From Larkinella terrae (lineage in GTDB: Bacteria; Bacteroidota; Bacteroidia; Cytophagales; Spirosomataceae): a DNA stretch of 64,000 bases. Below, in pieces: positions 26,394 to 46,002 of the stretch. A model generated the notes under the pieces. That model was not told the DNA's origin. It saw only the letters and a list, made by a program, of their open reading frames with translations, and did no database searches. Both the position numbers and the translations under genes were made by a program. Each line of letters opens with the position of its first letter. Positions within the stretch are counted from its first letter, which is position 1. Where the stretch lies: assembly GCF_009668025.1 (NCBI RefSeq), contig NZ_WJXZ01000011.1, positions 124,001 through 188,000 of the forward strand, read 5' to 3'.

Positions 26394-27056
26394 ATGAAAA
26401 TACTGATACTCGGTGCCACCGGTCGCACGGGAAAACTGCTCCTGGAGCAGGCGCTAAAAGCCGGTATTCTGGTGCATGCGCTGGTCCGGGACACCGATAA
26501 AGTGAAAGTGATCGACCGAAACCTGAAACTTTACGAAAGCAAAACGCTCGACCGCACCGCTCTCCGGCTGGCGATGCAGGGCTGCGATGCGGTTTTGAGT
26601 ACATTGAGCATCTCCCGAAAATCCGAGTTTCCGTGGAGCGGCCTGAAATCGCCGAAAGATTTTCTGTCGCACACCCTGCGCAACGTTCTCGAAATTGCGA
26701 ACGAACTCCACATCCGGCGCATTATCATCACCACGGCCTGGGGCGTTCACGAAACCAAAAAAGACATTCCGGGCTGGTTCCGGTTTTTGATCAATTACAG
26801 CAACGTCGGCGCAGCCTACCGCGACCATGAAATTCAGGAAAATCTGCTACAGGCTTCCCCAACCGACTGGACGATCGTCCGGCCCGTCGGCCTGACCAAT
26901 TCCCGAAAAAACCGCAAAATCCGCCTGACGACCCATAACCAGCCGAAACCAAGTCTGACCATCAGCCGGTCCAACGTGGCCAAATTTATGGTCGAAATCT
27001 ACAAAACCGGTGATTACAAGCAGGAAGCCGTCACGGTTTCGGAAGTCCGTGGGTAG
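26394..27056 (+). CDS. NAD(P)H-binding atypical SDR protein
   Basis: 220 residues from the ATG at 26394, which begins directly with the Rossmann strand (MKILILGATGRTG, a GxxGxxG dinucleotide loop). Member of the NAD(P)-binding NmrA/biliverdin-reductase-like group: VLSTLSIS, IIITTAWGVHE, WTIVRPVGLTNS. Likely an NAD(P)H-dependent reductase or redox-sensing protein; substrate unknown. Its last 26 bp overlap the convergent SMP-30 gene. Confidence 0.85.
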   Translation: MKILILGATGRTGKLLLEQALKAGILVHALVRDTDKVKVIDRNLKLYESKTLDRTALRLAMQGCDAVLSTLSISRKSEFPWSGLKSPKDFLSHTLRNVLEIANELHIRRIIITTAWGVHETKKDIPGWFRFLINYSNVGAAYRDHEIQENLLQASPTDWTIVRPVGLTNSRKNRKIRLTTHNQPKPSLTISRSNVAKFMVEIYKTGDYKQEAVTVSEVRG

Positions 27057-27918
27057 GTATCCCTTTAATTCCCGTATTTTTAACAATAAACAGACATCCG
27101 GCCAGCGGCTGTTCGGCCAGTTCCTGCTGACTCAGACCGGTTTTGGCCGACGTAATGTACAAATCCTCCAGTGAATCGCCCCCGAAGGTGCAGGATGTAA
27201 TCCGGGCGGCCGGGAGATCGATCTGCTGAAGCCGTTCGCCGGTATTCGGGTTACACCGAATGACTTTCCAGCCGTCCCACAACGCAATCCAGAGCATGCC
27301 TTTTTCGTCGATGGTCATGCCGTCGGGAAAACCATCTTCCTCCTGGAACTGAATCACAACTCGTTTATTGGCAATCGTCCCGGTTGTCACATCATATTCA
27401 TAGGCAACCACTTGCCGGGTTGGCGAGTCGATGTAGTATAATAATTGATGGTCGAGGCTCCAGGCCAGGCCGTTGGAGCAGGTTACATTCTCCACTTTGA
27501 TGGAAACCGACTGGTCGTTGTCCAGCATGTATAAAGCCCCGGCACCGGGCCGCTCGTCCACCGCCATCGTTCCCGCCCAAAACCGCCCGGCGGGGTCGCA
27601 CTTGCCGTCGTTGAACCGGTTTTCGGGCAAATGAACTTCCGGATCGGCAATGGGAACAACGGTTTCGTTTTCCAGCGAAATCTCGTGAAAACCGTGTTGC
27701 AGAGCCGCAATGAAGTTACCGGAAGGCAAAAGTGCAATGGCTCCCGTCATCTGACCGGTTTTAAAAATCCGGTGTTCCCCGCTGGCCGGGTAAAAGGAAT
27801 GGATTTCTCCCGGCAGAATATCCACCCACAAAATTCGCTGCTGATCCGCATCCCAAACCGGGCCTTCACCCAACTGGCAGGCATGATCCAGCACAACTTC
27901 ATACTTGTTATGATTCAT
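27031..27918 (-). CDS. SMP-30/gluconolactonase family lactonase
   Basis: 295 residues from the ATG at 27918; an in-frame TTG upstream lies in repeat DNA. Six-bladed propeller with the metal-binding residues expected for the family: Glu in LGEGPVWD, Asn/Asp in ENRFNDGKCDPAGRFWAGTM, Asn in CSNGLAWS and Asp in FPDGMTID. The family hydrolyses aldonolactones such as gluconolactone or related sugar lactones in the cytoplasm. It is the last gene of the 19-kb minus-strand catabolic cluster and fits the step after a sugar dehydrogenase. Confidence 0.9.
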   Translation of the reverse strand: MNHNKYEVVLDHACQLGEGPVWDADQQRILWVDILPGEIHSFYPASGEHRIFKTGQMTGAIALLPSGNFIAALQHGFHEISLENETVVPIADPEVHLPENRFNDGKCDPAGRFWAGTMAVDERPGAGALYMLDNDQSVSIKVENVTCSNGLAWSLDHQLLYYIDSPTRQVVAYEYDVTTGTIANKRVVIQFQEEDGFPDGMTIDEKGMLWIALWDGWKVIRCNPNTGERLQQIDLPAARITSCTFGGDSLEDLYITSAKTGLSQQELAEQPLAGCLFIVKNTGIKGIPTHGLPKP

Positions 27919-27930
27919 AACGCGTTTATT

Positions 27931-27998
27931 TAGCCCCAACCCCCTGAAGGGGGCTTAAAAAGGTCGAAGCGAAGCCCCCTGAAGGGGGTTGGGGGCTA
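27931..27998. repeat. Palindromic element (CCCCCTGAAGGGGG type) between SMP-30 and symporter genes
   Basis: Left arm 27931-27956 and right arm 27972-27998 are complementary apart from one base difference, each with an internal CCCCCTGAAGGGGG hairpin and outer TAGCCCCAAC/GTTGGGGGCTA arms. It fills the whole gap between the SSS stop and the SMP-30 start. Confidence 0.85.
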
Positions 27999-27999
27999 A

Positions 28000-29565
28000 C
28001 TAAGCATACCGGATGTAAAAGTACAAAACCATCGCGGTAACAATGGCCCACCAGATGAAAGGATTTCGAAATCCGCGCTGCTGGTCGCGTTCGGCGGGCA
28101 AAAGAGAGAGACTTTCCTTGTTCCAGATCAGGCCGACCAGCTCGGCTTCGGGCTTGGGTTTGGTCACCAGACTCACTAAAACACAGATAAGCATGCAGGT
28201 CCAGAAGACGATGCCAGTGCGGTTGAAAAATGGCATCGCCGGGAACAGGATTTCGAGCGCGATCGACAGCGGAATCGTCAGGATTCCGGCGGCCAGGGCT
28301 CCGGCGTGGGTGGTGCGTTTCCAGAGGATGCCGAGCAGGAACATCACGGCAATGCCGGGCGTGAACAAACCGTAGGCATTCATCAGGTACAGAAAAACCG
28401 GTTTGTCGGATTGAGTCATGAATAAACCGGTGCACAGAATGCCGACGACAATGATTACCGCGCCCGCCATTCGCCCAAACCGCACCGCCTGCTGCTCTGA
28501 AGCATCCTTTTTAAAATAAGTCAGGTAGACATCGACTGTCAGAATCGTGGTGCAGGAGTTGATCGCGCCCGACAGGTGCGACATCACGGCGGCAATCAAA
28601 CCCGCCATGACCAGCCCAACCAACCCAGCGGGCAGCAGATTTTCGACCAGCGTGGAAAACAGCAGATCCGGTTTTTCCAGATTCGGGAATAATTTGGGCG
28701 CCACCAGCGCCGGAACCGTGATGATGACCGGAATCAAAAATTTCAGGTAATCGCCAAACACGACACCCATCCGCGCGTGCCACTCGTTTTTGGCCGCCAG
28801 CACCCGCTGCACGATAAACTGGTTCGTCGCGCAGTAGAAAACGCTGATGCAGAGCGTACCGCCGAGGTACATCGTCCACGGAAAATCCGGGTCGCTGGCG
28901 GGCAGAATCAAATCCCAGTTTTTAGACGTTTCGATGACGGCGTCGACGCCACCAGCGGCCTTGACGGTCGCAATCGTCAGCGCCACCCCGCCCAGCACGA
29001 GCACGATCAGTTGCAGCATTTCGGTCCAGATCACCGCCCGCAAACCGCCCGCAATGGTGTAAATACCGGTAAAAACCGCTAAAACCAGCACACTGGCCAC
29101 CACCGGAATACCCAGCAGGGAATGCAGCGAAAGGGCGCCGAGGTAAAGCACCGCAGCGATTTCCACGAAAACGTAGGTCAGTAAAATCAGCGACGCGTAG
29201 GTCGTGCGGGCTGCGGCCCCGAAGCGTTTTTGTAAAAATTCGGGAATCGTGTAAAAACCGTTGCGGATGTAAAACGGCAGAAAAATCCAGAGCAGGGCGT
29301 TAAAACCGATCAAAATCGCACCCCATTCCATCGCAATCGCCACAAAACCACGGCTGTAGGCTACGCCCATCGCCCCGACCAGGTGGTGGCTGCTGATGTT
29401 GGACGCAATGATGCTGCCGCCGATCATCCACCACGGCAGTTTGTCGCCCGCCAGAAAGTAATCCCGCTTGGTTTTCTCGCCCTTGCGGGACGCGTAAATG
29501 CCCAACGAAATAACGCCCAGAATGTAAACGCCAAAAATAATCAGGTCAAGCGTGGATAGATTCAT
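28000..29565 (-). CDS. Sodium:solute symporter (SSS family)
   Basis: 521 residues with about 14 membrane helices (LDLIIFGVYILGVISLG... at the N-terminus, WAIVTAMVLYFYIRYA at the end). SGLT-like signatures RDYFLAGDKLPWWMIGGSIIASNISSHHLVG and GLRAVIWTEMLQ (written as conserved blocks around residues 35-65 and 170-185). Couples Na+ to uptake of sugars or related polyols and acids across the inner membrane. Its start overlaps the ceramidase-like gene by 20 bp, so the two are translated from one transcript. Confidence 0.93.
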   Translation of the reverse strand: MNLSTLDLIIFGVYILGVISLGIYASRKGEKTKRDYFLAGDKLPWWMIGGSIIASNISSHHLVGAMGVAYSRGFVAIAMEWGAILIGFNALLWIFLPFYIRNGFYTIPEFLQKRFGAAARTTYASLILLTYVFVEIAAVLYLGALSLHSLLGIPVVASVLVLAVFTGIYTIAGGLRAVIWTEMLQLIVLVLGGVALTIATVKAAGGVDAVIETSKNWDLILPASDPDFPWTMYLGGTLCISVFYCATNQFIVQRVLAAKNEWHARMGVVFGDYLKFLIPVIITVPALVAPKLFPNLEKPDLLFSTLVENLLPAGLVGLVMAGLIAAVMSHLSGAINSCTTILTVDVYLTYFKKDASEQQAVRFGRMAGAVIIVVGILCTGLFMTQSDKPVFLYLMNAYGLFTPGIAVMFLLGILWKRTTHAGALAAGILTIPLSIALEILFPAMPFFNRTGIVFWTCMLICVLVSLVTKPKPEAELVGLIWNKESLSLLPAERDQQRGFRNPFIWWAIVTAMVLYFYIRYA

Positions 29566-30946
29566 GTTGGATCAGCGAGCGGGTAATACGAATGGCGGTT
29601 TCGGTCAGCAGTTCCAATGAACCTTTTTCAAAGGGAGATTGCCAGACAGGATAAATGTCAGTATTGTATAAATCTTTGGGTGGTAAATAACCGGTCGAAC
29701 CATTCACAATGTTCATAACGGCGACAGCATTCGGCGCCAGCTGTTCCCGCAGGATTTGCTGAAATTCGGAATACGCTTCGTTCGGTTGACCAACCAGAAT
29801 CGCATCGCCAATTCGCCAGACCCAGAGCGGCATTTTGGTCGTGTTGCCATCGCCCACGGTTTTGCGAATTCCGCGTTTCCGCCACAGTCGTTCCTTCAAA
29901 ACATTGTCGGTACACGCGGCCCATTGCGCTTCAATTTCGGCCAGCGACGGCAGCGGTTTTAACGGCAATTCAACCTCAATTAGTTCGACTGAAAGTGCGA
30001 CAGAGGGCTCATAATCAGCTTTTTTCCAAATCGCCAGGGGCGCACCCGATTCAACGACTCCGCTAAAGGAAAGCTGCTTTTTGGGGGGTAAAATGGTTTC
30101 CAGTGTCGACAAAACCGCGTAGCCCAACTGCCGCCCGTAGGCATCCGGAATGCTGACATCGCCAACGTATTGTTCACGCGGAGCCAGCTCCCCGCAAGCC
30201 CCCAGCAGGAACAAAGTTGGTGCGTTGGTAGCGGTTTCCACCACTTCGCGCATGGCCCCGATGTAGTCGGGCGAAATCAGGCGGTTTTGCCACGCCAGCG
30301 TCGTTGGGTGACAAGCATAATTGACCAATGTTCCCATCGTTTTTCCCTCTCTGTTGACGATTTGTCCGACAAGAAGGGTATCGTCCGCCTTTTTTTCGGG
30401 GTTCCAGCCGCAGACGAACCGGTCCTTGTCGACGTCCGGCAAGTCCCGGTTGCTGGCCAGACTGCACTTGCCGTAATTCCAGGTCAGCGTGGCCGGTTCG
30501 GTTTTGGCCAAAGCTGTTTGAATGGCCTGAATGGCCCGTTGCTGCACCAACCGGAGGTATGCTTCGACCAGATGCCCGCCGGTTTTAGTCGCGTCATCAC
30601 GGCTGAGACTCGGCCCGGCGTGGGTGTGCGACAGGCAAAACAGCAGCCGCGATGCGTCCAGCGATACGGCTTCCAGAATGCCGTTGCGCAAAAACCGCTC
30701 GTCGTCGGAACTGCGCCACCAACCCAGATCGGCCCCGATCAACACGAGCGGTTTTTCTTCGCTGGTGGTTTGAAACGTCGCACAGGTCAGCACCAGCGGG
30801 CGGTGAATGCCCTCGGCGGCTTCGTGCGTAGCAGCTCCCCAGTTGCGGGCGTAAATGCCCACCGGTGGCGTAATGTCTTCCTGCGCCACACCGATCAAAC
30901 CAGTGAAGGAGGATTGCTTATAATCAGGGTATTTTTGCGATTCCAT
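29546..30946 (-). CDS. Neutral/alkaline ceramidase N-terminal-domain-like protein
   Basis: 466 residues, no signal peptide, so probably cytoplasmic. Similar to the N-terminal domain of neutral ceramidases (ITPPVG near residue 25; SHTHAGP around residue 105 as putative zinc-binding; NYACHPTT around 208). The usual GDVSPN catalytic-Ser motif is replaced by GACGELAPR, so true ceramidase activity is doubtful. Homologues in Bacteroidota and Planctomycetota sit in sugar-catabolic clusters with unknown substrate. Here it is fused by overlap to an Na+ symporter gene, which suggests it acts on the transported compound, perhaps as an amide or ester hydrolase. Confidence 0.8.
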   Translation of the reverse strand: MESQKYPDYKQSSFTGLIGVAQEDITPPVGIYARNWGAATHEAAEGIHRPLVLTCATFQTTSEEKPLVLIGADLGWWRSSDDERFLRNGILEAVSLDASRLLFCLSHTHAGPSLSRDDATKTGGHLVEAYLRLVQQRAIQAIQTALAKTEPATLTWNYGKCSLASNRDLPDVDKDRFVCGWNPEKKADDTLLVGQIVNREGKTMGTLVNYACHPTTLAWQNRLISPDYIGAMREVVETATNAPTLFLLGACGELAPREQYVGDVSIPDAYGRQLGYAVLSTLETILPPKKQLSFSGVVESGAPLAIWKKADYEPSVALSVELIEVELPLKPLPSLAEIEAQWAACTDNVLKERLWRKRGIRKTVGDGNTTKMPLWVWRIGDAILVGQPNEAYSEFQQILREQLAPNAVAVMNIVNGSTGYLPPKDLYNTDIYPVWQSPFEKGSLELLTETAIRITRSLIQHESIHA

Positions 30947-30978
30947 TCAACAAGAATTTAATTCATTTTATAATTATC

Positions 30979-31122
30979 AGCCCACGGTTTTAACCGTGGG
31001 ACCAACGCCAATTTTATCAAATAGACATAAACCGTTTTAACGGTTTGAAAATTCTAAAACCGTTAAAACGGTTAGCATCTTACGATTTCGATTTGTGAAC
31101 CCACGATTAAAATCGTGGGCTG
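30979..31122. repeat. Four-hairpin palindromic element between ceramidase-like and MFS genes
   Basis: Outer hairpins CCCACGGTTTTAACCGTGGG (30981-31000) and CCCACGATTAAAATCGTGGG (31100-31119) flank two inner hairpins of AACCGTTTTAACGGTT type (31029-31046 and ~31058-31073). The whole is a nested inverted repeat starting CAGCCCACG and ending CGTGGGCTG. Confidence 0.85.
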
Positions 31123-31156
31123 TTATTTTTCACACAATCATCCATATTCCACATTA

Positions 31157-32533
31157 CTATCCGGCTTTTCGGGTTAATAACTGTTCAATTTCTTCCAGGG
31201 ATTTGCCTTTCGTTTCGGGAACGGTGGTGAGGATAAATACGAAATAACCCAGCAGCAAAACCGCATAGATTCCGAATGTAACCGGCATTCCGAAAGTCGA
31301 TTTCATGACGGGAAACGAACCAATCACCAGAAAATTCGCCAGCCATAACGACAAAGTTGCCAGCGACATGGCACTTCCGCGAATGCGATTGGGGAAAATT
31401 TCGGACAGAATGACCCAGGTAACCGGACCGATGGTCGCGGCATAACCCGCAATAAAAACCAGAATAAATAGCAAAGCCAAGTAACCGGAAAGCTGGAAAT
31501 AAAAAGCGAGCGACAAAGCCAGAATATCGGCCGATAGCAGCGCCGATCCGAATAACAAAAGCTTTTTTCGGCCCGCTTTGTCGATGGTTGCAATGGCGAC
31601 GAACGTAAATACGCAGAGGATAACGCCCAGAATAACCGATTGCAGAAAAGCTGAATCTTCCGCAATTCCGACCTGTTTGAAAATCTCGGGGGCGTAGGCA
31701 ACGAGCGGTCCGCCCAGCTGAGAAGCAAACGCAATGACCATTCCAATCAGGACGATATGGAAAATATCTTTCCGAAATACCTCACTAAAATTTTCTTTTC
31801 TAATTTCCGAAAAACTGGCACGAATGGCGGCACTTTCAGCTTCGGCGTAGGCTAGTCCGCCGATTTTATCGAGTACTTTCCGGCCCTCAGTTTCTTGCTT
31901 TTTACTGATTAACCAACGCGGACTTTCGGAGACGAAAAACAGCCCAAGAAAGAATAATAAAGCTGGTGCCGATTGCGACGAAAACATCCATCGCCAGTTA
32001 TTATCGCCCGTATAAAGCAATAAATAATTGGAAAGATAAGCCAGCAAAACCCCGACCGTAACGGCCAGTTGATAGAACGAAACCAGCCGCCCGCGCAGGT
32101 AAGCCGGAGCCATTTCGGCGATGTAAATCGGACAAACCAGAGCGGCACAACCGATGGCCATACCGCTTAAAATCCGGAAAGCCACAAAGAGCGGAAACGT
32201 GGCCGCCCAGCCCGTACCAACGCCCGTGATTGCAAACAGAAAAGCGCTGATTAACAACATTTTCTTACGCCCAATCAGATCGCTCAGCCGCCCGGAACCC
32301 AGCGCTCCGATGGCGGCTCCGATGCTGATGCAGCCGACCGCCCAGCCGGTTTGCAGGTCGTCGAGCTGAAAATGCTGGCTGAAAAAATGAATGGTTCCCG
32401 AAATAATGGCCGTGTCGAAACCGAACAGAATTCCACCCAACGCGGCTATTGCATTAATGCGATAGATATATCCTTTGTTATAAAGAAAACCGCCGGAAGA
32501 AATTGTCTCGGTTGTCGCCAGTACCAAAGCCAT
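31157..32533 (-). CDS. MFS sugar porter
   Basis: 458 residues, 12 membrane helices, sugar-porter subfamily (XylE/GLUT type): GGILFGFDTAIISGT in TM1, GRLSDLIGRKK loop 2-3, PETKGKSLEEIE at the end of TM12. Likely proton- or facilitator-type monosaccharide or sugar-acid import. It sits 25 nt behind the PhyH dioxygenase gene in the same operon module and duplicates the import role of the SSS symporter. Confidence 0.93.
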   Translation of the reverse strand: MALVLATTETISSGGFLYNKGYIYRINAIAALGGILFGFDTAIISGTIHFFSQHFQLDDLQTGWAVGCISIGAAIGALGSGRLSDLIGRKKMLLISAFLFAITGVGTGWAATFPLFVAFRILSGMAIGCAALVCPIYIAEMAPAYLRGRLVSFYQLAVTVGVLLAYLSNYLLLYTGDNNWRWMFSSQSAPALLFFLGLFFVSESPRWLISKKQETEGRKVLDKIGGLAYAEAESAAIRASFSEIRKENFSEVFRKDIFHIVLIGMVIAFASQLGGPLVAYAPEIFKQVGIAEDSAFLQSVILGVILCVFTFVAIATIDKAGRKKLLLFGSALLSADILALSLAFYFQLSGYLALLFILVFIAGYAATIGPVTWVILSEIFPNRIRGSAMSLATLSLWLANFLVIGSFPVMKSTFGMPVTFGIYAVLLLGYFVFILTTVPETKGKSLEEIEQLLTRKAG

Positions 32534-32558
32534 TTTACGTAAAAGTTAGGTGGGTATC

Positions 32559-33386
32559 CTACTTCGCTTTCGCCTTTTCTACGCTCAGAAATTGAGTCGT
32601 ACTTTCCAGAATACCGGATGCATCGTCGTGCAGAAATAACGCATCATCCGGCACGGTTTGCAAGGGCGTAATACTCGACGGTGTTTCTGTAATATAAGGT
32701 GGATTCGACTGGCGATTATATGCCGAAATGAGCGACCAACGGGGCGTATCGGAAAGATTTGCTTCGGAACGGTGCAAAAGATTGCTGTGAAAAAAGAGCA
32801 GATCACCCGGTTTTAACTCGACATAAACCAGCTCCATGGTTTGCAACGCAAACTCCACATATTGCATCGACGCACCGACCTGTTCGCCGGAAAAACCGTG
32901 TTCGACCCGGCCCATTTTATGCGACTTTTTAATGACCTGCAAACAGCCGTTTTCTTTCGTTGCCTCCGTGATAGCCACCATTACGGAGATCAGTTGATCC
33001 GGAAATAAATAGCCGTTTTTATACCAATATCCGTAATCCTGATGCCACTCCCAGGCCCCGCCAACCCTCGGTTCTTTCTGCATCAATTTGGAATGAAAAT
33101 GGCAAACAGGAGCCTTTCCGTCCAGCAGTTTATTCACCGAATCGACCATGCGTTCACTACGGGTGAGCAAACCGTATACGTCGTCGCCCGGCGTAAACCA
33201 CAGCGCCAGTTTCGTTTTTTTTCCGGCTTTATCGTCCAGGTCAAAACTGTTTTTCTGAATCGCTTTGTCCTCAATCGCGACCCGGTACAGCTTCGCAATT
33301 TCGTCCTGCGTTAAAAAACCGGGAATGATTAAATAACCATTCTCCTGAAAAGATTCCACTTGCTCATCGGTCAGAATAAAGGCCAT
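32559..33386 (-). CDS. Phytanoyl-CoA dioxygenase (PhyH) family Fe(II)/2-oxoglutarate oxygenase
   Basis: 275 residues from the ATG at 33386 (MAFILTDEQVESFQENGY); the open frame upstream belongs to the overlapping SDR gene end. Double-stranded beta-helix with H115-x-D117 (WHQDYGYW), a distal His at ~205 (LLHRSEAN) and R216 for 2-oxoglutarate (DTPRWSLI). Catalyses hydroxylation of an unactivated carbon, or in some members C-X bond cleavage. In this sugar-type cluster it may hydroxylate or dealkylate the imported compound. It is 11 nt behind the SDR gene. Confidence 0.9.
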   Translation of the reverse strand: MAFILTDEQVESFQENGYLIIPGFLTQDEIAKLYRVAIEDKAIQKNSFDLDDKAGKKTKLALWFTPGDDVYGLLTRSERMVDSVNKLLDGKAPVCHFHSKLMQKEPRVGGAWEWHQDYGYWYKNGYLFPDQLISVMVAITEATKENGCLQVIKKSHKMGRVEHGFSGEQVGASMQYVEFALQTMELVYVELKPGDLLFFHSNLLHRSEANLSDTPRWSLISAYNRQSNPPYITETPSSITPLQTVPDDALFLHDDASGILESTTQFLSVEKAKAK

Positions 33387-33397
33387 ATCGGTTCGGG

Positions 33398-34165: not shown

Positions 34166-34180
34166 TAATTCGTATGGTTT

Positions 34181-34256: not shown

Positions 34257-34266
34257 TTTTGATCGC

Positions 34267-35445: not shown

Positions 35446-35462
35446 TCGTATTTTACTGTTAA

Positions 35463-37011: not shown

Positions 37012-37019
37012 ATTTACCT

Positions 37020-38246: not shown

Positions 38247-38263
38247 ACCGTGGAGAGAATTTT

Positions 38264-38354
38264 GCCCCTAAATCCCCTAAAGGGGACTTGGACGCTACTG
38301 TATCCGATCAGAAAGTCCGGCAGCGGCCGACCGTCCTTCAGGGGATTTAGGGGC
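38264..38354. repeat. Palindromic element (CCCCTAAATCCCC type) between the two Gfo/Idh/MocA genes
   Basis: Outer arms GCCCCTAAATCCCCT and AGGGGATTTAGGGGC; the right half contains a GTCCGGCAGCGGCCGACCG insert that recurs in the element at 53584-53691. Confidence 0.85.
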
Positions 38355-38382
38355 TAATCAAGTTTAGGAATAAAATCAGCCT

Positions 38383-39669: not shown

Positions 39670-39712
39670 GGCGGAAATAGTCAGAATGAGTTTATGGTTT
39701 TGTTTACCGGCC

Positions 39713-39802
39713 GCCCCTAAATCCCTTAAAGGGGACCTGGACACAGAATGTCCAGATTTGAAGTCCCCTTTAGGCCGGGCCGACGTTTCGGGATTTAGGG
39801 GC
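39713..39802. repeat. Palindromic element (CCCCTAAATCCC type) between susD and oxidoreductase genes
   Basis: GCCCCTAAATCCC at 39713 pairs with GGGATTTAGGGGC ending at 39802; the inner part has CTTAAAGGGGACCTGGACA and a matching AAGTCCCCTTTAGG. Confidence 0.85.
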
Positions 39803-39811
39803 AGCTGGCTA

Positions 39812-41590
39812 TCAATACCCTGGGTTTTGTTTTAAAGTCGGTTTTCCATCTTTTGTACTCAAATCGATCTGAGCCTGCGGAATCGGATAGATTTCGTTTT
39901 TGCCTTTCGTAAAGAATGCGCCCTTCATGTAATCCTGATTGAAATACTTCGGAACCGCGGCTTCGTACTTCAAATACTTGTTCAGATACGTCGCCATGTA
40001 ACCGCTTCCGTTGTCGTAGCGTTGCAGATCAAAAAACCGGTGGTGTTCGAGAGCCAGCTCGAGTTTGCGTTCAAACCGGACGGCTTCGCGGGCAAACTCC
40101 TTGCCTTTTTGCACAAACTGACCGGTATACAAACCAACCTTGTAATTGGCCGCCGGTTCGTTCGTAAACCCTTTCAGCGGTGCCGCATTGTCGATGTATT
40201 TCTTGACAAAACCGGCCGGATTGGCCGCCCGCGCCCGAATCATGTTCACGTAGGTTTCGGCCTGCGCCAGACTCCCGATTTCCACTTCAACCTCAGCCGC
40301 CCAGAGCAGCACGTCCGCAAAACGAATCAGGCTGTACGGGTTGTTCGTATTTGCATTTTCACGATCGGTCGCAATGCGGGCCTGCCAGGCAATGTTTTTG
40401 ATGACGCTGTACGGTCCACCGGTGTTTTGCTGCCGAATCCAGGCCATTCCGGGGTGAATGCCCCAGTCCAGATACGGAATACCCCGGCGACCCACGACCC
40501 AATCCAACCGTGCATCCAGCGTACCGGCGTAGGGCGTAAACGGCGCCGACGATTGCAAGCCCTGGTCATTGGTTACCAGGTTGTTATTGTACGTATCGAT
40601 CATCGGTAATCCGTTGGCGTCAGTCTGGTACGAGTTGACCAGGTCGAACGACGGCTGCAACCAGCCGTAGCAGCAGGACGGCGGACCACCAAACGGGCCG
40701 TTATACATGTCGGCCGCATTTCCGTTGGCGCCATTGGCTCCGTCATATACCGACATCTGAACGGTAAAAACCGCTTCGGGGCCGTGTTTTTTATCGGTGC
40801 GGAAGTTGTCGTTATACAACTCAGCCAGCGCGTATTTCTTGCCGTTGGAAGTTACTCCACTCGCGATGATTTCGGCCAGCAGCGGTTTGGCCTCGGTGAA
40901 TTTTTGCTGGAATAGGTAGACCTTCGCCAGAAAGGCCTTGGCCGCCCATTTGTTCGCCCGGCCCACGTCGGATTTAGTAGGCGTCAGATTATCAGCGGCA
41001 TACTTGAAATCCGCTTCAATTTTCGGCCAGATCGATTCCGTATTGGAAACGTTGTAATTACCAGCATCATACGTGACCGATTCATCCAGGAAAGGCACAT
41101 TCCGCCATAATTTGGCCGCTTCGAAATGGTAAACGGCGCGCAGAAAAATGGCTTCGGCTTTCGTCTGAGCCGCTTCGTCGGCGGTTACTTCGGTAACCTT
41201 AGGTAATAAACGTAAGACGTCGTTGGTCCGCTGCACGGCGGCATACAGAAATTGCCAGCGTTCGTTGGTCGACGAACTGGTCGGATCGTGGGTATAGGCC
41301 TCGTACGACGCCAGCAAGCCGTTTGGTTCGGTTCCGACGTGCGCATCGCTGGACGCCATACTCGACAAAACCGTCGGGCTGCTCCAGAAACTTCCGCCGA
41401 CAGCACCAACGCCGTCCAGCAGTGAATAAGCGCCAATCAATACACCTTTCAGGCCGGATCTCGTGGCTAAGGTGCTTTCGCTGATCGAGCCGATGGGTTG
41501 TTTCTCCAGAAACTCTTCTTTGCAGGCTGATAAGGATAAAAGGGTGACGAAACAGCCTGTTAAAATCGGTTTTAACTGAATTCTTTTCAT
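39812..41590 (-). CDS. SusD/RagB-family outer-membrane nutrient-binding lipoprotein
   Basis: 592 residues from the ATG at 41590 (MKRIQLKPIL). Lipoprotein signal with lipobox LSAC, followed by FLEKQPIGS typical of SusD. Alpha-helical TPR scaffold (residues ~80-230), C-terminal RagB/SusD domain ending ...IYPIPQAQIDLS. Caps the SusC channel and binds the substrate on the cell surface. It lies 26 nt downstream of susC. Confidence 0.95.
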   Translation of the reverse strand: MKRIQLKPILTGCFVTLLSLSACKEEFLEKQPIGSISESTLATRSGLKGVLIGAYSLLDGVGAVGGSFWSSPTVLSSMASSDAHVGTEPNGLLASYEAYTHDPTSSSTNERWQFLYAAVQRTNDVLRLLPKVTEVTADEAAQTKAEAIFLRAVYHFEAAKLWRNVPFLDESVTYDAGNYNVSNTESIWPKIEADFKYAADNLTPTKSDVGRANKWAAKAFLAKVYLFQQKFTEAKPLLAEIIASGVTSNGKKYALAELYNDNFRTDKKHGPEAVFTVQMSVYDGANGANGNAADMYNGPFGGPPSCCYGWLQPSFDLVNSYQTDANGLPMIDTYNNNLVTNDQGLQSSAPFTPYAGTLDARLDWVVGRRGIPYLDWGIHPGMAWIRQQNTGGPYSVIKNIAWQARIATDRENANTNNPYSLIRFADVLLWAAEVEVEIGSLAQAETYVNMIRARAANPAGFVKKYIDNAAPLKGFTNEPAANYKVGLYTGQFVQKGKEFAREAVRFERKLELALEHHRFFDLQRYDNGSGYMATYLNKYLKYEAAVPKYFNQDYMKGAFFTKGKNEIYPIPQAQIDLSTKDGKPTLKQNPGY

Positions 41591-41616
41591 GATTTTATTT
41601 TTCAACAGGGTTTGTT

Positions 41617-44600
41617 TTAAAAGGAGAGATTGACGCCGAGAAGAAAATTCCGCTGGTTGTTCGGATAATTCCCGAAATCAACCCCAAAAGCCGAGCTGCT
41701 ACCTCCTAATTCCGGATCCAAACCGGTATATTTTGTGATGGTAAATAAGTTGGCGGCCTGTGCGTAAACCCGCAGTTTTCCGATACCTATTCTCTGTAAA
41801 ATGCTCGAAGGAAACGTATATCCGAGAATTAACGACCGCATTCTCAGGTAAGAACCGTCTTCGATAAAGTATGAATTCAGCGCACCCGATGTGCTTAACG
41901 AAGCACCGGTTTCAATAATAGGAACAGTCGTATTCTTGTTTTCCGGCGTCCAGGCATTCAGCAACACATTGCTTTTATTACCAACATATCCGGCGTAAAA
42001 GTGCGTATACGAGCGGATTGTATTGACGATTTCGTTGCCTTGCGATCCGTAAAGAATAGTCGATAAATCAAAGCCTTTGTAATTAAATCCGAGATTGATT
42101 CCGTACGTAAAATCCGGATTCGGGCTACCCAAAAACGTGCGGTCATCGGGTGTAATGACGCCATCGCCGTTCACATCCCGGTATTTAAAACGACCCGGTG
42201 CCGCACCACTCTGCGCCGGTGATTCGGCTACTTCGGCTGCGGAATTGAAAAGCCCGAGAATGTCATATCCGAAGAACGAACTGACGGCCTGACCTTCCTG
42301 ATTCCGGACCAGGTTCCCCATTCCCTGCAAACTCGAGGTTTCAAAATAACCGGGGTTCGGGATATCGACAACGAGGTTCTTATAGGTTGTGATGTTGGCT
42401 CCGATCGAGAACTGCAATCCGTCGGTGATTGTGCCGCGATAAGTCACCGAAGCATCAACCCCTTTATTTTGGATATCTCCGATATTGACGACCGGAGCGG
42501 TAGCCCCGCCAACGGTGGCCGGCAGCGGCTGGGTGAACAACAAACCGTTGATCGATTTCTTGTAATATTCAACCGAAATGTCCAGTTTGTTGTTGAGGAC
42601 GGTCGCGTCAAGTCCAAAATTGGAAACGACATTTTCTTCCCAACCCGCCTTCGGGTTGCCGATCCGTGTTTGGATAAATCCCTGTTGAACGGTATTGCTG
42701 GTTCCGGCAATGTCGTAGTAAGCCGTGCCATAACCACCACCGTACAAGCTGAAAGCATTTTCGGGCGCCACGTTATTCTGGGAACCTAAAACACCGTAAC
42801 TACCTCTGATTTTCAAATCATTAACCCAACTGACATCTTTCATGAAGGCTTCGTTGGAAACCCGCCAGCCCACCGAAACCGACGGAAAGACACCGTACCG
42901 GCTTTCACTACCAAAGCGGGACGAACCGTCCCGGCGAATGGTGGCTCCGATTAAATATTTGTCGTCGTAGGCGTAATCAACGCGTCCAAAAAGCGAGAAT
43001 AAGCTGTTGATGTAACCACTGCTGGAGTTCGTAACGCCCGTGGTCCCGTTGCCCAGAATCAGGTAATTATAATCGGTGGAGAAGAATTTCTGGGAACCTC
43101 CCGCCAGTCCGCGACCCGAGCTTTTAATGGCTTCTGAACCGACCAGTGCCTGGATGGAATGCTTCCCGATCAGGGTATTATATTTCAATGTATTGGTCCA
43201 CGTCAAAGTGCTGTTAAAACTCGCACTTTCCGAATAACTGTTCGGGCTACTGTTCCCCTGTTTGTTTTCGTATTGCGTGTAGTTAAAATTCTGGGCGTAG
43301 TTATTATCGATCGTGGCACCGAAGCTGGTGCGGGCCGTGAAGTTTTTCAGGAAATCAACTTCGGCGTACGCATTGCCGACGATATTCCAGGAATAAGTTC
43401 GGTTATTAAGTGTCCGTTTTTGCATGGCAACCGGGTTCTGATTACTTCCCAAACCGGGTCCGGCAAACGTCCCTCCGTAATTGCCTTTAATATCGTAAAC
43501 CGGAATGATCGGCATCATTTTATACACTGCCGAAAGCGTTCCAAATTCGGCCTGATTACCAAAACCGGGGGAATCTTTATAAAACACGTTTACATTCTCA
43601 CCAATCCGGGCATTTTTACCAATTTTATACGCCGTATTGACGCGAGCCGAGTACCGTTTTAAGTACGTTTCCATCAACGTTCCCTGCTGGTTAATATACC
43701 CCAGAGAAAGCAGATAATTAGACTTATCGGTTCCACCACTCGCCGTCAGGTTATGACTGGTCATGGGAGCCGGATTAAAGAGTTCCTGGAACCAATTCGT
43801 ACCGGTTTTATTGACTTGTTGAATCAAATAATTATTGGCCGTATTGATCGGATCGTAGCTGTATTTAGCCGGATCGACGGCAGGATCACCGGCTTTTGCG
43901 GCTCCGGCCACGCCCGGCCCTGCATACAAAAAGTCCGGCATTCCGTTAGCAAAAAGGACATTATTGGGTGTAGCGATTTTGACCACCTTCATAAAGTCTT
44001 CGGAATTCAGGAGGTCAAACGGGTTGCCGGGCAGCGGCATTTGCATTCCATAATAAGCGTCGTAGGTAATGGTCGGTTTGCCGGATTTTCCCTTTTTAGT
44101 GGTAACAATCAGTACCCCATTTGAACCGCGGACCCCGTAAATAGCGGCCGCTCCGGCGTCTTTCAACACCTGAATCGACTCAATATCGTCGGCGCTGATG
44201 TTATTCAGATCGGCCTGGATGCCATCTACCAAAACCAGCGGTTGCGTATTGCCAAAGGAAGTCACCCCGCGAACAAAAATATTGCTGCTGGCACCCGGAA
44301 CCCCCGACGTGATGACATTGACCCCGGAAGCCTGCCCCTGAAGGGCCTGAACGGCCGAACCCGCCGGGAAAGATTTTACCCCTTTCATGTCGACAACCGC
44401 TACGGAACCGGTGATATCTTTCTTACGCTGGCTGGAATAACCCGTTACCACAACTTCATTAAGTGACTGTACATCAGCGGCTAAATTAATATTAATGGCC
44501 GTCTGGCTGTTTACTGCTATTTCCTGGGTGACGTAACCGATAAACGAAAAGATCAACACATCGCTCGGTTTGGCGCTAATCGAATACTGACCGCTGGCTC

Positions 44601-44793
44601 CCGTAGCGGTTCCTCTGCTTGTGCCTTTTATGACGACGTTAACGCCCGGTAGTGGTGTCTGACTAACGTTATCGAGCACCACGCCCTGTATTTCCCGCGC
44701 ATCCTGAGCGGCCAGTGGCCCATACGTACAGAGAAAAAAAGCAAGCAACAGGACATAGCCCGGCCCTATCTGGTAAAATTTTCTTCGTTTCAT
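41617..44793 (-). CDS. SusC/RagA-family TonB-dependent outer-membrane transporter
   Basis: 1058 residues: signal peptide ending LAAQ, carboxypeptidase-regulatory-like domain (~33-115), the SusC signature NEVVVTGYSSQRKKDITGS (~125-143), TonB plug (~145-240, SSNIFVRGVTSFGN, VLVDGI), and a 22-stranded barrel to LGVNLSF. Imports oligomeric or bulky substrates together with SusD. First structural gene of the 19-kb catabolic cluster; a 570-bp upstream region with GntR-type motifs precedes it. Confidence 0.96.
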   Translation of the reverse strand: MKRRKFYQIGPGYVLLLAFFLCTYGPLAAQDAREIQGVVLDNVSQTPLPGVNVVIKGTSRGTATGASGQYSISAKPSDVLIFSFIGYVTQEIAVNSQTAININLAADVQSLNEVVVTGYSSQRKKDITGSVAVVDMKGVKSFPAGSAVQALQGQASGVNVITSGVPGASSNIFVRGVTSFGNTQPLVLVDGIQADLNNISADDIESIQVLKDAGAAAIYGVRGSNGVLIVTTKKGKSGKPTITYDAYYGMQMPLPGNPFDLLNSEDFMKVVKIATPNNVLFANGMPDFLYAGPGVAGAAKAGDPAVDPAKYSYDPINTANNYLIQQVNKTGTNWFQELFNPAPMTSHNLTASGGTDKSNYLLSLGYINQQGTLMETYLKRYSARVNTAYKIGKNARIGENVNVFYKDSPGFGNQAEFGTLSAVYKMMPIIPVYDIKGNYGGTFAGPGLGSNQNPVAMQKRTLNNRTYSWNIVGNAYAEVDFLKNFTARTSFGATIDNNYAQNFNYTQYENKQGNSSPNSYSESASFNSTLTWTNTLKYNTLIGKHSIQALVGSEAIKSSGRGLAGGSQKFFSTDYNYLILGNGTTGVTNSSSGYINSLFSLFGRVDYAYDDKYLIGATIRRDGSSRFGSESRYGVFPSVSVGWRVSNEAFMKDVSWVNDLKIRGSYGVLGSQNNVAPENAFSLYGGGYGTAYYDIAGTSNTVQQGFIQTRIGNPKAGWEENVVSNFGLDATVLNNKLDISVEYYKKSINGLLFTQPLPATVGGATAPVVNIGDIQNKGVDASVTYRGTITDGLQFSIGANITTYKNLVVDIPNPGYFETSSLQGMGNLVRNQEGQAVSSFFGYDILGLFNSAAEVAESPAQSGAAPGRFKYRDVNGDGVITPDDRTFLGSPNPDFTYGINLGFNYKGFDLSTILYGSQGNEIVNTIRSYTHFYAGYVGNKSNVLLNAWTPENKNTTVPIIETGASLSTSGALNSYFIEDGSYLRMRSLILGYTFPSSILQRIGIGKLRVYAQAANLFTITKYTGLDPELGGSSSAFGVDFGNYPNNQRNFLLGVNLSF

Positions 44794-44922
44794 ATACCAA
44801 TACGTTTTGTGGTTAATTAAGGGATATTGACTAACTGATTCGCAATTCGTATTCAGCGCACTATTTCTTTGATCCCCGGTTTTCCGGAATTGGCAATGGA
44901 TACAGTCTTGGCAGAAAGAAAA

Positions 44923-44933
44923 TTGTAAACAAA
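44923..44933 (+). promoter_or_regulatory. Putative GntR operator in the susC leader region
   Basis: TTGTAAACAAA, identical over 11 nt to the reverse complement of 45120-45130. Located 130 bp upstream of the susC start, inside the presumed leader. Confidence 0.45.
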
Positions 44934-45104
44934 TCCTGAATGCGAGGTCCAGGCTGGCTACGGAATTTATCGTTGAAATCGGCTTTTAGATTCCTGAAGC
45001 AGGGGCGCTATCTCAAAAAGGCAGAATCCAAAAGTATCTTTTATTCGCTGTACTGAACTTGGATTGGCTTACGCGATGAAGTATTAATAATCGATTTATG
45101 CTTA

Positions 45105-45130
45105 CAAATATATTGTAAATTTGTTTACAA
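45105..45130 (-). promoter_or_regulatory. Candidate susC promoter with overlapping GntR operator
   Basis: Minus strand: TTGTAAACAA (45130-45121) followed 8 nt later by TATATTTG (45112-45105), an exact TAnnTTTG -7 box. The TTG of the operator is nearer than the usual 17-23 nt, so the exact -33 element is uncertain. Left and right arms TTGTAAA (45113-45119) and TTTACAA (45124-45130) make a wider palindrome. Repressor binding would block this promoter. Confidence 0.5.
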
Positions 45131-45363
45131 AAAAATTATCTATTATTTTTTTTCGATTTGAGAAAATAAAGGATTTCGCGAGCGGGGACATAGCATTGTC
45201 TACGAAACTGTTTTGCTTCGAAAGCAATATGGAGCAATGGAAGCTACAGGGCTGGACCGCCAGAGCGAGTCAAATTTAGAGTAAGAGAAAAAGGAAAGGC
45301 GGATCGGAATAGTCCGGACAACCGCGCGGAAGATGGGGAGCTGGATTTGGAGGAAAACCGGTA

Positions 45364-46002
45364 TTAATCCAGGTCAAGGGAGGATACTTCGCCCCGAATT
45401 AAGTGTCTGGTAAGGGTTTCTTCGGCTAACTTGAGGTCTTTTTCTTTGAGGGCTTTCAGGATCTGCCGGTGTTCCATATCGGTCAATTCGTAATCGTCCA
45501 TATGGGTCTGGGTTTGCCCGAGTTTCTGGTGAAAAAGAGGAATATTACCTGATTGATAGAGGTTTCTCAACTTTTCGTTGTCGGCACTGTCGATCAGCGT
45601 TTCGTGAAATTTTACGTCAGCTTCGCAGGCTCCACCAAAATAACCGCGTTGAATCATGGAGGTAAAGTCATCGCAAATCCGCTCCAGCTCGTCTATGTGC
45701 TGGTCGTCGATTTTCTGAATCGCCAGCCGGATCGCGCCCAGTTCCAGAATTTCCCGCAACTCGCGAATCTGCTGAATGTCGGCCGCCACCAGGGACTTAA
45801 CGAAAAAACCGCCTTTCTCACCCAAAACCACCAACTGCTCACCCAGAAGCCGCGTCAGGGCTTCGCGGATGGCCATGCGGTTGACATCCAGCCGGGTCGC
45901 CCAAATGTCTTCTTTCAGCCGGGTGCCGGATACGACTTGGTTTGACAATATCTTTTTCCGTAGTTCAGTATATGCTTTATTGGCCAGCGAATCCTCTTTC
46001 AT
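45364..46002 (-). CDS. GntR-family (FadR/FCD subfamily) transcriptional regulator
   Basis: 212 residues from the ATG at 46002; an upstream in-frame TTG at 46026 is rejected because it lies inside the operator-like sequence. Winged helix at ~5-70 (ANKAYTELRKKILSNQVVSGTRLKED, RMAIREALTRL), then an all-helical FCD ligand domain with the metal-site residues D/H (ADVKFHETLID), His in DMEHRQIL and His in TRHLIRG. FCD regulators usually sense sugar acids, carboxylates or similar metabolites and repress when unliganded. It is placed at the head of the SusCD catabolic cluster and is its probable regulator. Confidence 0.93.
   Translation of the reverse strand: MKEDSLANKAYTELRKKILSNQVVSGTRLKEDIWATRLDVNRMAIREALTRLLGEQLVVLGEKGGFFVKSLVAADIQQIRELREILELGAIRLAIQKIDDQHIDELERICDDFTSMIQRGYFGGACEADVKFHETLIDSADNEKLRNLYQSGNIPLFHQKLGQTQTHMDDYELTDMEHRQILKALKEKDLKLAEETLTRHLIRGEVSSLDLD

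What the first reader, a model, noticed from the sequence alone, without database searches (positions are those of the whole stretch)
27031..46002. 19-kb SusCD catabolic cluster without glycoside hydrolases, possibly for a nitrogen-containing sugar acid
Thirteen same-strand genes combine surface import (SusCD), two inner-membrane importers (SSS, MFS), two Tat-exported Gfo/Idh/MocA oxidoreductases, a HemL-like aminotransferase, an enolase-superfamily dehydratase, an SDR, a PhyH oxygenase, a ceramidase-like hydrolase lacking the usual GDVSPN Ser motif, and an SMP-30 lactonase, under an FCD-type GntR. The set has no classical polysaccharide-degrading enzyme. Family knowledge suggests oxidation, lactone opening and dehydration of a sugar acid; the aminotransferase and amidase-like protein suggest an amino or N-acyl group, and PhyH suggests an extra hydroxylation or dealkylation. 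The substrate is inferred, not shown.
Basis: partly seen in the sequence, partly recalled or inferred. Interest (0 to 1): 0.78.

Follow-up and report, generated by a model that had tools for sequence, protein, structure and literature searches.

The report
Conserved amino-sugar-acid catabolic gene cluster
A bacterium carries a 13-gene import-and-breakdown cluster whose inner enzyme set recurs in several bacterial phyla and probably dismantles a still unidentified nitrogen-bearing sugar acid.

Summary
In detail: thirteen minus-strand genes at 27031-46026 encode GntR, SusC, SusD, two Gfo/Idh/MocA proteins, a class-III aminotransferase (AT), an enolase-superfamily dehydratase (Enol), SDR, PhyH, MFS, a ceramidase-like protein (CerA), SSS and SMP-30. 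AT-Enol-SDR-CerA-SSS is an invariant block in 13 of 13 clustered family loci; all five genes are in 27 of 27 well-flanked Bacteroidota loci. AT, Enol and CerA also sit together in four other phyla. PhyH and the MFS occur only in close Larkinella relatives and say little about substrate. Enol keeps galactonate-dehydratase catalytic residues, but its presumed pocket differs and is nearly fixed in 81 rows. AT is not HemL (GSAM Glu is Lys413 in 57 of 57 rows). CerA has the ceramidase fold and zinc ligands without the serine. A palindrome, TTTGTWWACAAA, precedes many of the Bacteroidota operons. Best reading: CerA deacylates an N-acylated amino-sugar acid, AT swaps amine for ketone, SDR reduces it, Enol makes a 2-keto-3-deoxy acid. 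A Planctomycete variant lacks AT and has a DHDPS-family gene. The substrate is unproven.

The parts
45364..46026 (-). FCD-type GntR regulator (likely ATG start at 46002)
   Evidence: Pfam FCD 1.6e-22 and GntR 1.2e-11; a homologue of 65% identity or more in 13 of 13 clustered family loci
46009..46020 (.). Operator-like palindrome TTTGTAAACAAT at the GntR start/promoter (one mismatch to TTTGTWWACAAA)
45120..45131 (.). Exact operator-like palindrome TTTGTTTACAAA in the GntR-SusC gap
   Evidence: exact or near-exact sites upstream of SusC in 11 of 12 family loci examined
44922..44933 (.). Second operator-like palindrome ATTGTAAACAAA before SusC (one mismatch)
41617..44793 (-). SusC-type TonB-dependent transporter
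   Evidence: Pfam Plug, CarbopepD_reg_2 and barrel domains
39812..41605 (-). SusD-type surface lipoprotein (likely ATG at 41590)
   Evidence: Pfam SusD_RagB 3.6e-38
38383..39744 (-). Gfo/Idh/MocA oxidoreductase GFO1, probably Tat-exported (likely ATG at 39669)
   Evidence: Pfam PF01408 2.7e-18; RR motif by reading
37020..38246 (-). Gfo/Idh/MocA oxidoreductase GFO2, probably Tat-exported
   Evidence: Pfam PF01408 2.1e-19; RR motif by reading
35463..36815 (-). AT: class-III aminotransferase, HemL-like but not HemL (core)
   Evidence: Pfam Aminotran_3 1.3e-52; below the HemL equivalog cut-off, 306.7 against 527.3 bits; K274 and R27 kept, K413 in place of the GSAM Glu
34267..35445 (-). Enol: enolase-superfamily acid-sugar dehydratase of galactonate-dehydratase type with its own presumed pocket (core)
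   Evidence: catalytic and metal residues invariant in 81 of 81 related rows
33398..34165 (-). SDR oxidoreductase, YxxxK at Tyr158 (core in Bacteroidota)
   Evidence: Pfam adh_short_C2 2.5e-49; YxxxK
32559..33470 (-). PhyH-family Fe(II)/2-oxoglutarate oxygenase (likely ATG at 33386); lineage-specific accessory gene
   Evidence: Pfam PhyH 3.7e-38; HxD and a downstream His by reading; present in 4 of 80 loci
31157..32533 (-). Sugar-porter MFS; lineage-specific accessory gene
   Evidence: Pfam Sugar_tr 7.7e-113, TIGR00879; present in 4 of 80 loci
29546..30946 (-). CerA: ceramidase-fold zinc hydrolase, apparently cytoplasmic, without the Ser motif (core)
   Evidence: Pfam PF04734 37.5 bits against cut-off 32.1; AF2 model pLDDT 94.6; Foldseek to neutral ceramidase 2zws E 1.8e-23; conserved ligand positions
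28000..29565 (-). SSS-family sodium/solute symporter (core in Bacteroidota)
   Evidence: Pfam SSF 7.2e-69; 27 of 27 well-flanked Bacteroidota loci
27031..27939 (-). SMP-30/gluconolactonase-family protein (likely ATG at 27918), frequent companion
   Evidence: Pfam SGL 2.5e-87; 12 of 13 clustered family loci, 13 of 80 loci at 45% identity or more

Best explanation
The locus is a GntR-controlled import-and-catabolism operon for an N-acylated amino-sugar acid, or a small glycoside of one. SusCD takes it across the outer membrane. The probably Tat-exported Gfo/Idh/MocA proteins oxidise or cleave it in the periplasm. SSS (here perhaps also the MFS) brings the monomer into the cytoplasm, where SMP-30 opens any lactone. 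CerA, a zinc hydrolase of ceramidase fold, removes the N-acyl group. AT exchanges the freed amine for a ketone. SDR reduces the ketone to an alcohol. Enol dehydrates the resulting 2,3-diol acid to a 2-keto-3-deoxy acid, which the genome's separate 2-keto-3-deoxy-gluconate (KDG) kinase-like protein and aldolase can finish. Shown here by sequence, fold and conservation: gene families, intact catalytic residues, the invariant core, a shared palindrome. Inferred: every reaction, its order, the substrate, the direction of SDR and GntR's control.
For: Core block AT-Enol-SDR-CerA-SSS in 13 of 13 clustered family loci, in two genomes of other families, and all five genes in 27 of 27 well-flanked Bacteroidota loci. 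The same 14 of 200 family genomes carry CerA and Enol at 88% or more, all with AT. Enol keeps D199/E225/E251, K160 and both His (H201, H301) in 81 of 81 rows (roles recalled from GalD), while segments presumed to line the pocket differ from GalD and are nearly fixed: probably one conserved substrate class that is not galactonate. A separate Enol paralogue in the same genome scores far better as galactonate dehydratase (440.5 against 330.2 bits) and sits beside a KDPG-type aldolase. AT keeps the PLP Lys and the Arg aligned with the GSAM carboxylate Arg (56 of 57 rows, one gapped), but the GSAM Glu is Lys413 in 57 of 57 rows (some species appear twice), which suits a two-substrate transaminase on a carboxylate-bearing substrate. 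CerA has the neutral-ceramidase fold with Zn-ligand positions kept and no signal peptide by reading. Amino-sugar or uronate context in relatives: NagP-, NagA- and NagB-like genes after the block in L060; a heparinase-II-like lyase (E 1.9e-94 to 2fuq for the L136 protein) in 5 loci from about three lineages; a sulfatase in L084 and L091 (SGSH_C domain in the L084 protein); a GH109-like Gfo protein in L047. KDG-kinase-like, KDPG aldolase and uronate genes lie elsewhere in the genome. The ong pathway of marine chitin oxidisers follows the same logic with other enzymes: TBDR, SSS, Zn N-deacetylase, PLP enzyme, KDG (passages of PMC9537276 and PMC12017989).
Against: No substrate, product or activity is shown. 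In the DHDPS variant (17 of 80 loci) CerA and, in all but one, Enol persist, while in all 17 genomes the best AT match is only 33-37% identical, so CerA need not feed AT. There Enol itself would have to expel the nitrogen, or there is none. 14 Enol positions separate AT loci from DHDPS loci, so their substrates may differ. NagA and NagP neighbour the block in 1 of 80 loci, the heparinase-like lyase in 4 of 80. CerA's acyl-removing role rests on fold and zinc site only; nothing shows an amide substrate. Seven of 33 well-flanked non-Bacteroidota loci have CerA without a recognised Enol, and 27 of 33 lack AT. The block is sporadic: CerA in 14 of 200 family genomes and 3 of 395 phylum genomes including the own one, and 7 of the 9 sampled genomes of the own genus.
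Confidence: 0.42

Rival explanations
1. Conjugated sugar acid. CerA hydrolyses an amide that joins a uronic or aldonic acid to an amine or amino acid. Enol then dehydrates the freed acid, and AT with SDR deal with the amine-bearing half.
For: Enol-CerA is the widest-kept pair: Enol is found with CerA in 67 of 80 loci, AT in 38 of 80. Heparinase-II-like, GH88-like and beta-helix proteins near a few relatives point to uronic acids.
Against: AT and SDR are tightly tied to the same block in Bacteroidota although released amino acids would need no dedicated pair; no amide-linked uronate enzyme is otherwise visible in the cluster.
Confidence: 0.18
2. Nitrogen-free acid. GFO and SMP-30 make an aldonate, Enol dehydrates it, SDR oxidises the 2-keto-3-deoxy acid and CerA hydrolyses the resulting diketo acid or a lactone. 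AT acts on a semialdehyde or keto acid product.
For: SDR and hydrolase pairs follow acid-sugar dehydratases in known non-phosphorylating L-fucose and L-rhamnose routes (recalled; the abstract start of PMC11199699 in the listing describes an L-2-keto-3-deoxyfuconate 4-dehydrogenase). A DHDPS-family gene stands in place of AT in one clade.
Against: CerA persists in loci with a DHDPS protein, where C-C cleavage would be redundant; ceramidase-fold C-C hydrolases are not known to me; it leaves AT with only a loose role.
Confidence: 0.17
3. N-acetyl-hexosaminate route like ong: GlcNAc or GalNAc is oxidised at C1, CerA deacetylates the acid, and AT removes the C2 amine or Enol eliminates it directly.
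For: Same logical parts as ong; NagP-, NagA- and NagB-like genes next to the block in L060; in nine loci a GSDH-family protein, the L136 member of which carries Pfam GSDH and cytochrome c.
Against: AT keeps the Arg that in GSAM holds a carboxylate, and HemL-like enzymes mostly act on amines distant from the carboxylate (recalled), though D-phenylglycine aminotransferase is a relative. NagA and NagP were found in 1 of 80 loci; chitinases were not searched for.
Confidence: 0.15
4. The genes are a biosynthetic or detoxification set that modifies a keto sugar, with AT installing rather than removing an amine.
For: Class-III aminotransferases install amines in some antibiotic and iminosugar pathways (recalled); PhyH is a tailoring-type oxygenase.
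Against: SusCD, SSS, GntR and a dehydratase are import and catabolic parts; PhyH is not conserved; no glycosyltransferase or assembly gene among the 13.
Confidence: 0.04

Closest known systems
ong oxidative chitin (GlcNAc1A) pathway of marine Pseudoalteromonas (PMC9537276; passages seen)
   Same: TonB-dependent import, SSS inner-membrane importer, zinc N-deacetylase, PLP enzyme, KDG-type end product, dedicated regulator
   Different: Enzymes differ: OngB is described as a putative D-aminoacylase and OngC as a putative D-amino acid deaminase; here a ceramidase-fold hydrolase, a class-III aminotransferase, an SDR and an acid-sugar dehydratase; a GntR-type regulator, whereas the passage seen relates OngR to RpiR; no KdgK in the cluster
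De Ley-Doudoroff D-galactonate pathway (DgoD/GalD dehydratase; pathway recalled)
   Same: Enol has GalD-type metal ligands and catalytic His pair and passes the NCBIfam galactonate dehydratase cut-off
   Different: Different, nearly uniform presumed pocket; the genome has a separate better-scoring galactonate dehydratase beside a KDPG-type aldolase; no kinase or aldolase in the window cluster
Neutral ceramidase (PF04734; 2zws, 4wgk)
   Same: Fold and the zinc-ligand positions
   Different: No GDVSPN serine, 466 instead of about 640-690 residues, no signal peptide by reading, far below the neutral-ceramidase equivalog score
Glutamate-1-semialdehyde aminomutase (HemL) and HemL-like aminotransferases (D-phenylglycine, beta-transaminases, GntE)
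   Same: Class-III family, PLP Lys, carboxylate Arg
   Different: The GSAM Glu is Lys413; HemL and GntE cut-offs failed
Bacteroidota polysaccharide utilisation loci
   Same: SusC/SusD pair, clustered catabolic genes, local regulator
   Different: No glycoside hydrolase or lyase in this copy; regulator is GntR; the core looks like a monomer pathway and recurs in other phyla

Membership tests
Glutamate-1-semialdehyde 2,1-aminomutase (HemL) | PLP-binding Lys and carboxylate-binding Arg | tested here: met
   K274 and R27 in 56 of 57 rows, the remaining row gapped
Glutamate-1-semialdehyde 2,1-aminomutase (HemL) | Active-site Glu (Glu406 of the Synechococcus enzyme; role and number recalled) that sets aminomutase against transaminase chemistry | tested here: not met
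   The Glu of 3k28 aligns with Lys413 in 57 of 57 rows; TIGR00713 306.7 bits against cut-off 527.3
D-galactonate dehydratase (DgoD/GalD) | Metal ligands, Lys and catalytic His pair of the dehydratase (roles recalled) | tested here: met
   K160, D199, H201, E225, E251, H301 in 81 of 81 rows, aligned to 3rr1
D-galactonate dehydratase (DgoD/GalD) | Substrate-pocket segments like GalD | tested here: inconclusive
   [26 protein letters not shown] and CESVH segments differ from 3rr1 and are invariant or nearly so in 81 rows; that they line the pocket is inferred from their place in the sequence, and no activity was tested
D-galactonate dehydratase (DgoD/GalD) | Passes the NCBIfam galactonate dehydratase cut-off | tested here: met
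   330.2 bits against 311, but the genome's other Enol scores 440.5
Neutral ceramidase | Ceramidase fold | tested here: met
   AF2 model pLDDT 94.6; Foldseek 2zws E 1.8e-23, probability 1.00, TM-score 0.69 by query length
Neutral ceramidase | Zn ligands (H97, H204, E411, Y448 of the Pseudomonas enzyme, numbers recalled) | tested here: met
   Align with H107, H213, E390, Y420, conserved in 43, 43, 42 and 43 of 43 rows. The E390/Y420 stretch aligns at only 0.4 bits by sequence, and the geometry in the model was not measured
Neutral ceramidase | GDVSPN-type serine | tested here: not met
   Position 255 is A 31, S 11, G 1 of 43 rows; neutral-ceramidase equivalog 22.6 bits against 1200
Neutral ceramidase | Hydrolysis of ceramide | not testable with these tools
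   -
Polysaccharide utilisation locus | SusC/SusD pair | tested here: met
Polysaccharide utilisation locus | Glycan-degrading CAZyme in the locus | tested here: not met
   None among the 13 genes by Pfam; present in some relatives
ong GlcNAc1A pathway | OngB (D-aminoacylase-type amidohydrolase) and OngC (D-amino-acid-deaminase-like) as enzymes | tested here: not met
   CerA's only confident fold matches are ceramidases and AT is class III; the OngB and OngC sequences themselves were not aligned
ong GlcNAc1A pathway | Deacetylation then nitrogen removal giving KDG | not testable with these tools
   Needs enzyme assays
3-keto-glycoside pathway of Bacteroidota (Gfo dehydrogenases plus DUF1080 hydrolase; definition recalled) | Keto-glycoside hydrolase or isomerase partner in the locus | tested here: not met
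   No such domain in the 13 proteins; Gfo proteins far below the BT_2158 and BT_2159 equivalog cut-offs

The most novel reading that the evidence does not exclude
An old, non-phosphorylating catabolic pathway for N-acylated amino-sugar acids, spread over at least five phyla, uses a ceramidase-fold zinc hydrolase as sugar N-deacylase, a HemL-like class-III transaminase and a new specificity class of enolase-superfamily dehydratase. One Planctomycete-rich clade traded the transaminase for a DHDPS-family protein.
Probability: 0.38. Interest if true: 0.7.

Novelty: new variant of a known kind. Interest (0 to 1): 0.56.

Why it matters
Amino-sugar acids occur in bacterial surface polymers and in oxidised chitin, and few routes for breaking them down are known (recalled; the ong papers, describe one). 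A cross-phylum block whose dehydratase passes NCBIfam's galactonate dehydratase cut-off and whose hydrolase matches the ceramidase domain is probably misannotated in many genomes. The block offers five defined proteins and a predicted operator, so substrate and regulation could be tested directly in a cultured Larkinella, Dyadobacter or Chitinophaga strain. It would also give a function to short ceramidase-like proteins of Bacteroidota, Planctomycetota and Verrucomicrobiota.

Tried and rejected
PhyH as substrate evidence: rejected, found in only 4 of 80 loci, all Larkinella. HemL as literal identity: rejected on residues and scores. Galactonate dehydratase as literal identity: doubted, not excluded, on presumed pocket and scores. 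A wider regulon in the own genome: 25 exact TTTGTNNACAAA sites against 10 for the reversed-pattern control; I looked at the 4 of 24 other sites that have an A/T centre; none begins an operon resembling this one, so no further member is claimed; the other 20 were not looked at. In the window itself 8 of the 11 sites with up to one mismatch lie outside the two regulatory gaps (3.8 expected by chance). DHDPS or KDPG enzymes inside the window cluster: none by Pfam; the genome has 2 PF01081 and 10 PF00701 matches elsewhere, one of the latter below cut-off. Papers: searches returned nothing; two gave five papers each, 66 and 78 the top 12 of 284 and 52, in which I saw no matching system from titles and abstract starts; 35 led to the ong papers. 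So I found no description of this block under those terms in the held library, which lacks most subscription journals. Listings only were seen except for passages of PMC9537276 and PMC12017989.

Identity thresholds were chosen by me: AT 45, Enol 60, SDR 45, SSS 55, CerA 40%. The CerA alignment A2 used 42 of the 80 loci plus the window; L060 and L119 were dropped for a stop near the end of the match and the other 36 were not included, to keep it small. The Enol alignment kept rows of 330 residues or more. The 14 separating Enol positions use an 85% threshold, although the script's printed heading says 90%. The palindrome was picked as the commonest of many candidates in part of the loci later used to show it, so its counts are not an independent test; 72 of 85 loci have no exact site, none of the 13 that do is outside Bacteroidota, and distances run to open-frame starts, not to proven start codons. 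In the Enol tree the outgroup branch is very long, so direction of change is inferred only from the wider spread of AT.

Full report
What is there. The window holds thirteen minus-strand genes between 27031 and 46026 in the order GntR, SusC, SusD, GFO1, GFO2, AT, Enol, SDR, PhyH, MFS, CerA, SSS, SMP-30, named by Pfam and NCBIfam matches. Two of its same-genus relatives have contigs of the same length as named Larkinella records (870016 bases in L. rosea and 165700 in Larkinella sp. C7), so I take the host to be a Larkinella (inference).

Is the grouping real. In 200 genomes of the family, AT is found at E <= 1e-100 in 16 and CerA at E <= 1e-30 in 14. Enol at E <= 1e-80 is found in 22, of which 14 lie at 88-100% identity and 8 at 40-46%. 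The 14 CerA genomes are exactly the 14 high-identity Enol genomes and all are among the 16 AT genomes. The two AT genomes without CerA have AT at only 54%. Within the genus 7 of 9 sampled genomes have it. Across 395 genomes of the phylum CerA at E <= 1e-25 is in only 3, the own one included, so the block is sporadic. In the 13 clustered loci taken from the other family genomes (L035-L047), AT-Enol-SDR-CerA-SSS keep one order in 13 of 13, GntR is present in 13 of 13, and SMP-30 in 12 of 13. At least one of GFO1/GFO2 stands before AT in 12 of 13; in the thirteenth, L046, a heparinase-like protein stands there. PhyH and the MFS occur in only 4 of 13. Two genomes from other families, one with two copies, show the same five-gene block.

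How far it reaches. Of 60 loci with more than 3.5 kb on both sides, all 27 from Bacteroidota have AT, Enol, SDR and SSS. Of 33 from other phyla, 26 have Enol, 6 AT, 8 SDR and 2 SSS, and 14 have a DHDPS-family gene. Over the 80 loci, AT occurs in 38 and that DHDPS family in 17, never together; one of the 17 has SDR and that one lacks a recognised Enol. Enol was not recognised in 13 of 80, 6 of which have a flank under 3.5 kb. AT with Enol and CerA is seen in Bacteroidota, Armatimonadota (L082, L093), Planctomycetota (L085, L094, L103), Acidobacteriota (L098) and Verrucomicrobiota (L102, L107). The 17 DHDPS-type loci are all Planctomycetota by title. Their genomes hold no AT ortholog that I could see: the best match in each is 33-37% identical, as a housekeeping HemL would be (many are metagenome assemblies of unstated completeness). 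In a tree of 67 Enol proteins, AT-bearing (38 rows) and DHDPS-bearing (16 rows) proteins are split by one branch (support 100/94; 13 rows in no group not counted), and 14 Enol positions differ between them at an 85% threshold. Because AT is spread over more phyla, I read the DHDPS form as derived (inference).

The enzymes. Enol keeps K160, D199, H201, E225, E251 and H301, which align with 3rr1, in 81 of 81 rows; the roles of these residues are recalled from GalD. Segments presumed to line the pocket differ from 3rr1 and are nearly fixed in the same rows, and 140 of 392 columns are invariant. That points to one substrate class across phyla, probably not galactonate. NCBIfam would nevertheless name it galactonate dehydratase (330.2 bits, cut-off 311). 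The genome has another Enol protein, 39% identical, that scores 440.5 and stands next to a KDPG-type aldolase. AT is nearest in the PDB to glutamate-1-semialdehyde aminomutases (3k28, E 5.1e-71), with D-phenylglycine and beta-transaminases further off. It keeps the PLP Lys and the Arg that binds carboxylate in that family (56 of 57 rows, one gapped), but the mutase Glu is Lys413 in every row. So it is probably a transaminase acting on a carboxylate-bearing substrate. CerA was modelled from 43 sequences (pLDDT 94.6); its only confident structural matches are neutral ceramidases. The four zinc ligands of 2zws (numbers recalled) align with H107, H213, E390 and Y420 (the second half of that alignment is weak by sequence), conserved in at least 42 of 43 rows. 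The serine position is alanine in 31 of 43 and serine in 11. CerA shows no signal peptide by reading. The SDR has its YxxxK.

Regulation. A palindrome TTTGTNNACAAA was the commonest inverted repeat near the GntR genes, in 19 of 25 loci, the window counted as one. It occurs 17 times in 13 of 85 loci (1.49 Mb), against a mean of 2.35 and a maximum of 5 in 20 dinucleotide shuffles. Fifteen of the 17 lie within 400 bases upstream of SusC, AT, GntR or a gene next to the block; the other two are in L049 and L084. All 13 loci are Bacteroidota. Many Larkinella loci of that set end before SusC; in the family loci 11 of 12 examined have a site before SusC. The centre is A/T in all sites printed except that of L084. 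The window has one exact site (45120) and two with one mismatch (44922, 46009) on both sides of GntR, and eight other one-mismatch sites elsewhere. In L066 and L075 a second site precedes an Nramp-epimerase-DHDPS-GSDH group downstream of SSS, which suggests that this group belongs to the same regulon there. The motif was found and counted on overlapping sets, so it is a strong lead, not a proof.

What the neighbours say. In L060 (Dyadobacter diqingensis) the block is followed, after SMP-30 and a Gfo protein, by NagP (best hit, below its cut-off), NagA (300.5 bits, cut-off 225.65) and NagB (below its cut-off). A heparinase-II-like lyase stands by the block in L046, L062, L127, L132 and L136, about three lineages (E 1.9e-94 to 2fuq for the L136 protein). 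L084 and L091 carry a sulfatase (the L084 protein has an SGSH_C domain), L077 and L090 share a protein with weak, below-cut-off GH88 similarity in L077, and L047 has a Gfo protein with a GH109 C-terminal domain. These are few cases, but most point to amino sugars and uronic acids. Against this, NagA and NagP appear in only 1 of 80 loci and the lyase in 4 of 80 (plus L046).

Mechanism. The most economical reading uses every core gene: CerA removes an N-acyl group, AT turns the amine into a ketone, SDR reduces the ketone, Enol dehydrates the diol acid to a 2-keto-3-deoxy acid, and SSS imports the starting monomer. Possible finishing enzymes exist elsewhere in the genome: a KDG-kinase-like protein and a KDPG aldolase in a uronate gene group with tagaturonate reductase and UxuA, and a second aldolase. 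The analogous ong pathway uses import by TBDR and SSS, zinc deacetylation and a PLP enzyme to reach KDG (passages). The weak point is the DHDPS clade, where CerA and Enol work without AT: there either Enol eliminates nitrogen itself or the substrate has none. The position of the amine, the acyl group, the stereochemistry and the polymer of origin are open.

Verdict. Observation confirmed; interpretation partly supported and narrowed. It is a real, conserved catabolic module, undescribed under the terms I searched, assembled from known enzyme families with apparently changed specificities.

Noticed in passing
window 46186-53458 (-): A second SusC/SusD pair with a FecR-type regulator and a 364-residue protein without a Pfam match lies directly upstream on the same strand; it looks like a separate locus.
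   Followed up: no
window 23122-25581 (-): A ribonucleotide-reductase-like gene (name recalled from its sequence) next to the cluster is also its neighbour in four Larkinella relatives (family 10), so the genomic position of the cluster is conserved there.
   Followed up: partly
L053 and L054 (genome G232): Two copies of the block with equal CerA scores lie about 25 kb apart across the start of one chromosome record, one of them beside transposase-like genes by reading.
   Followed up: partly
L189:5997-8979 and L188:6212-14523 (own genome): Separate galactonate-dehydratase/KDPG-aldolase and hexuronate (tagaturonate reductase, KDPG aldolase, KDG-kinase-like, UxuA) gene groups that could finish the product of the window cluster.
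   Followed up: partly
L123:11322-13544 and 16 other loci with the DHDPS gene: Planctomycete variant: CerA, in 16 of 17 with Enol, with a DHDPS-family gene and often an MFS, without AT; the DHDPS protein of L123 matches L-2-keto-3-deoxyarabonate dehydratase and DHDPS about equally.
   Followed up: yes
L048 and L049: AT homologues at 54% identity without Enol or CerA, beside an EamA transporter and an apparently related protein (556 residues in L049, cut short by the contig end in L048; no Pfam match for the L049 one): probably a different pathway using the same aminotransferase family.
   Followed up: partly
NCBIfam NF010624 (galactonate dehydratase) against window 34267-35445: The equivalog cut-off admits an enzyme whose presumed pocket differs, so this name may be over-applied in other genomes.
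   Followed up: yes
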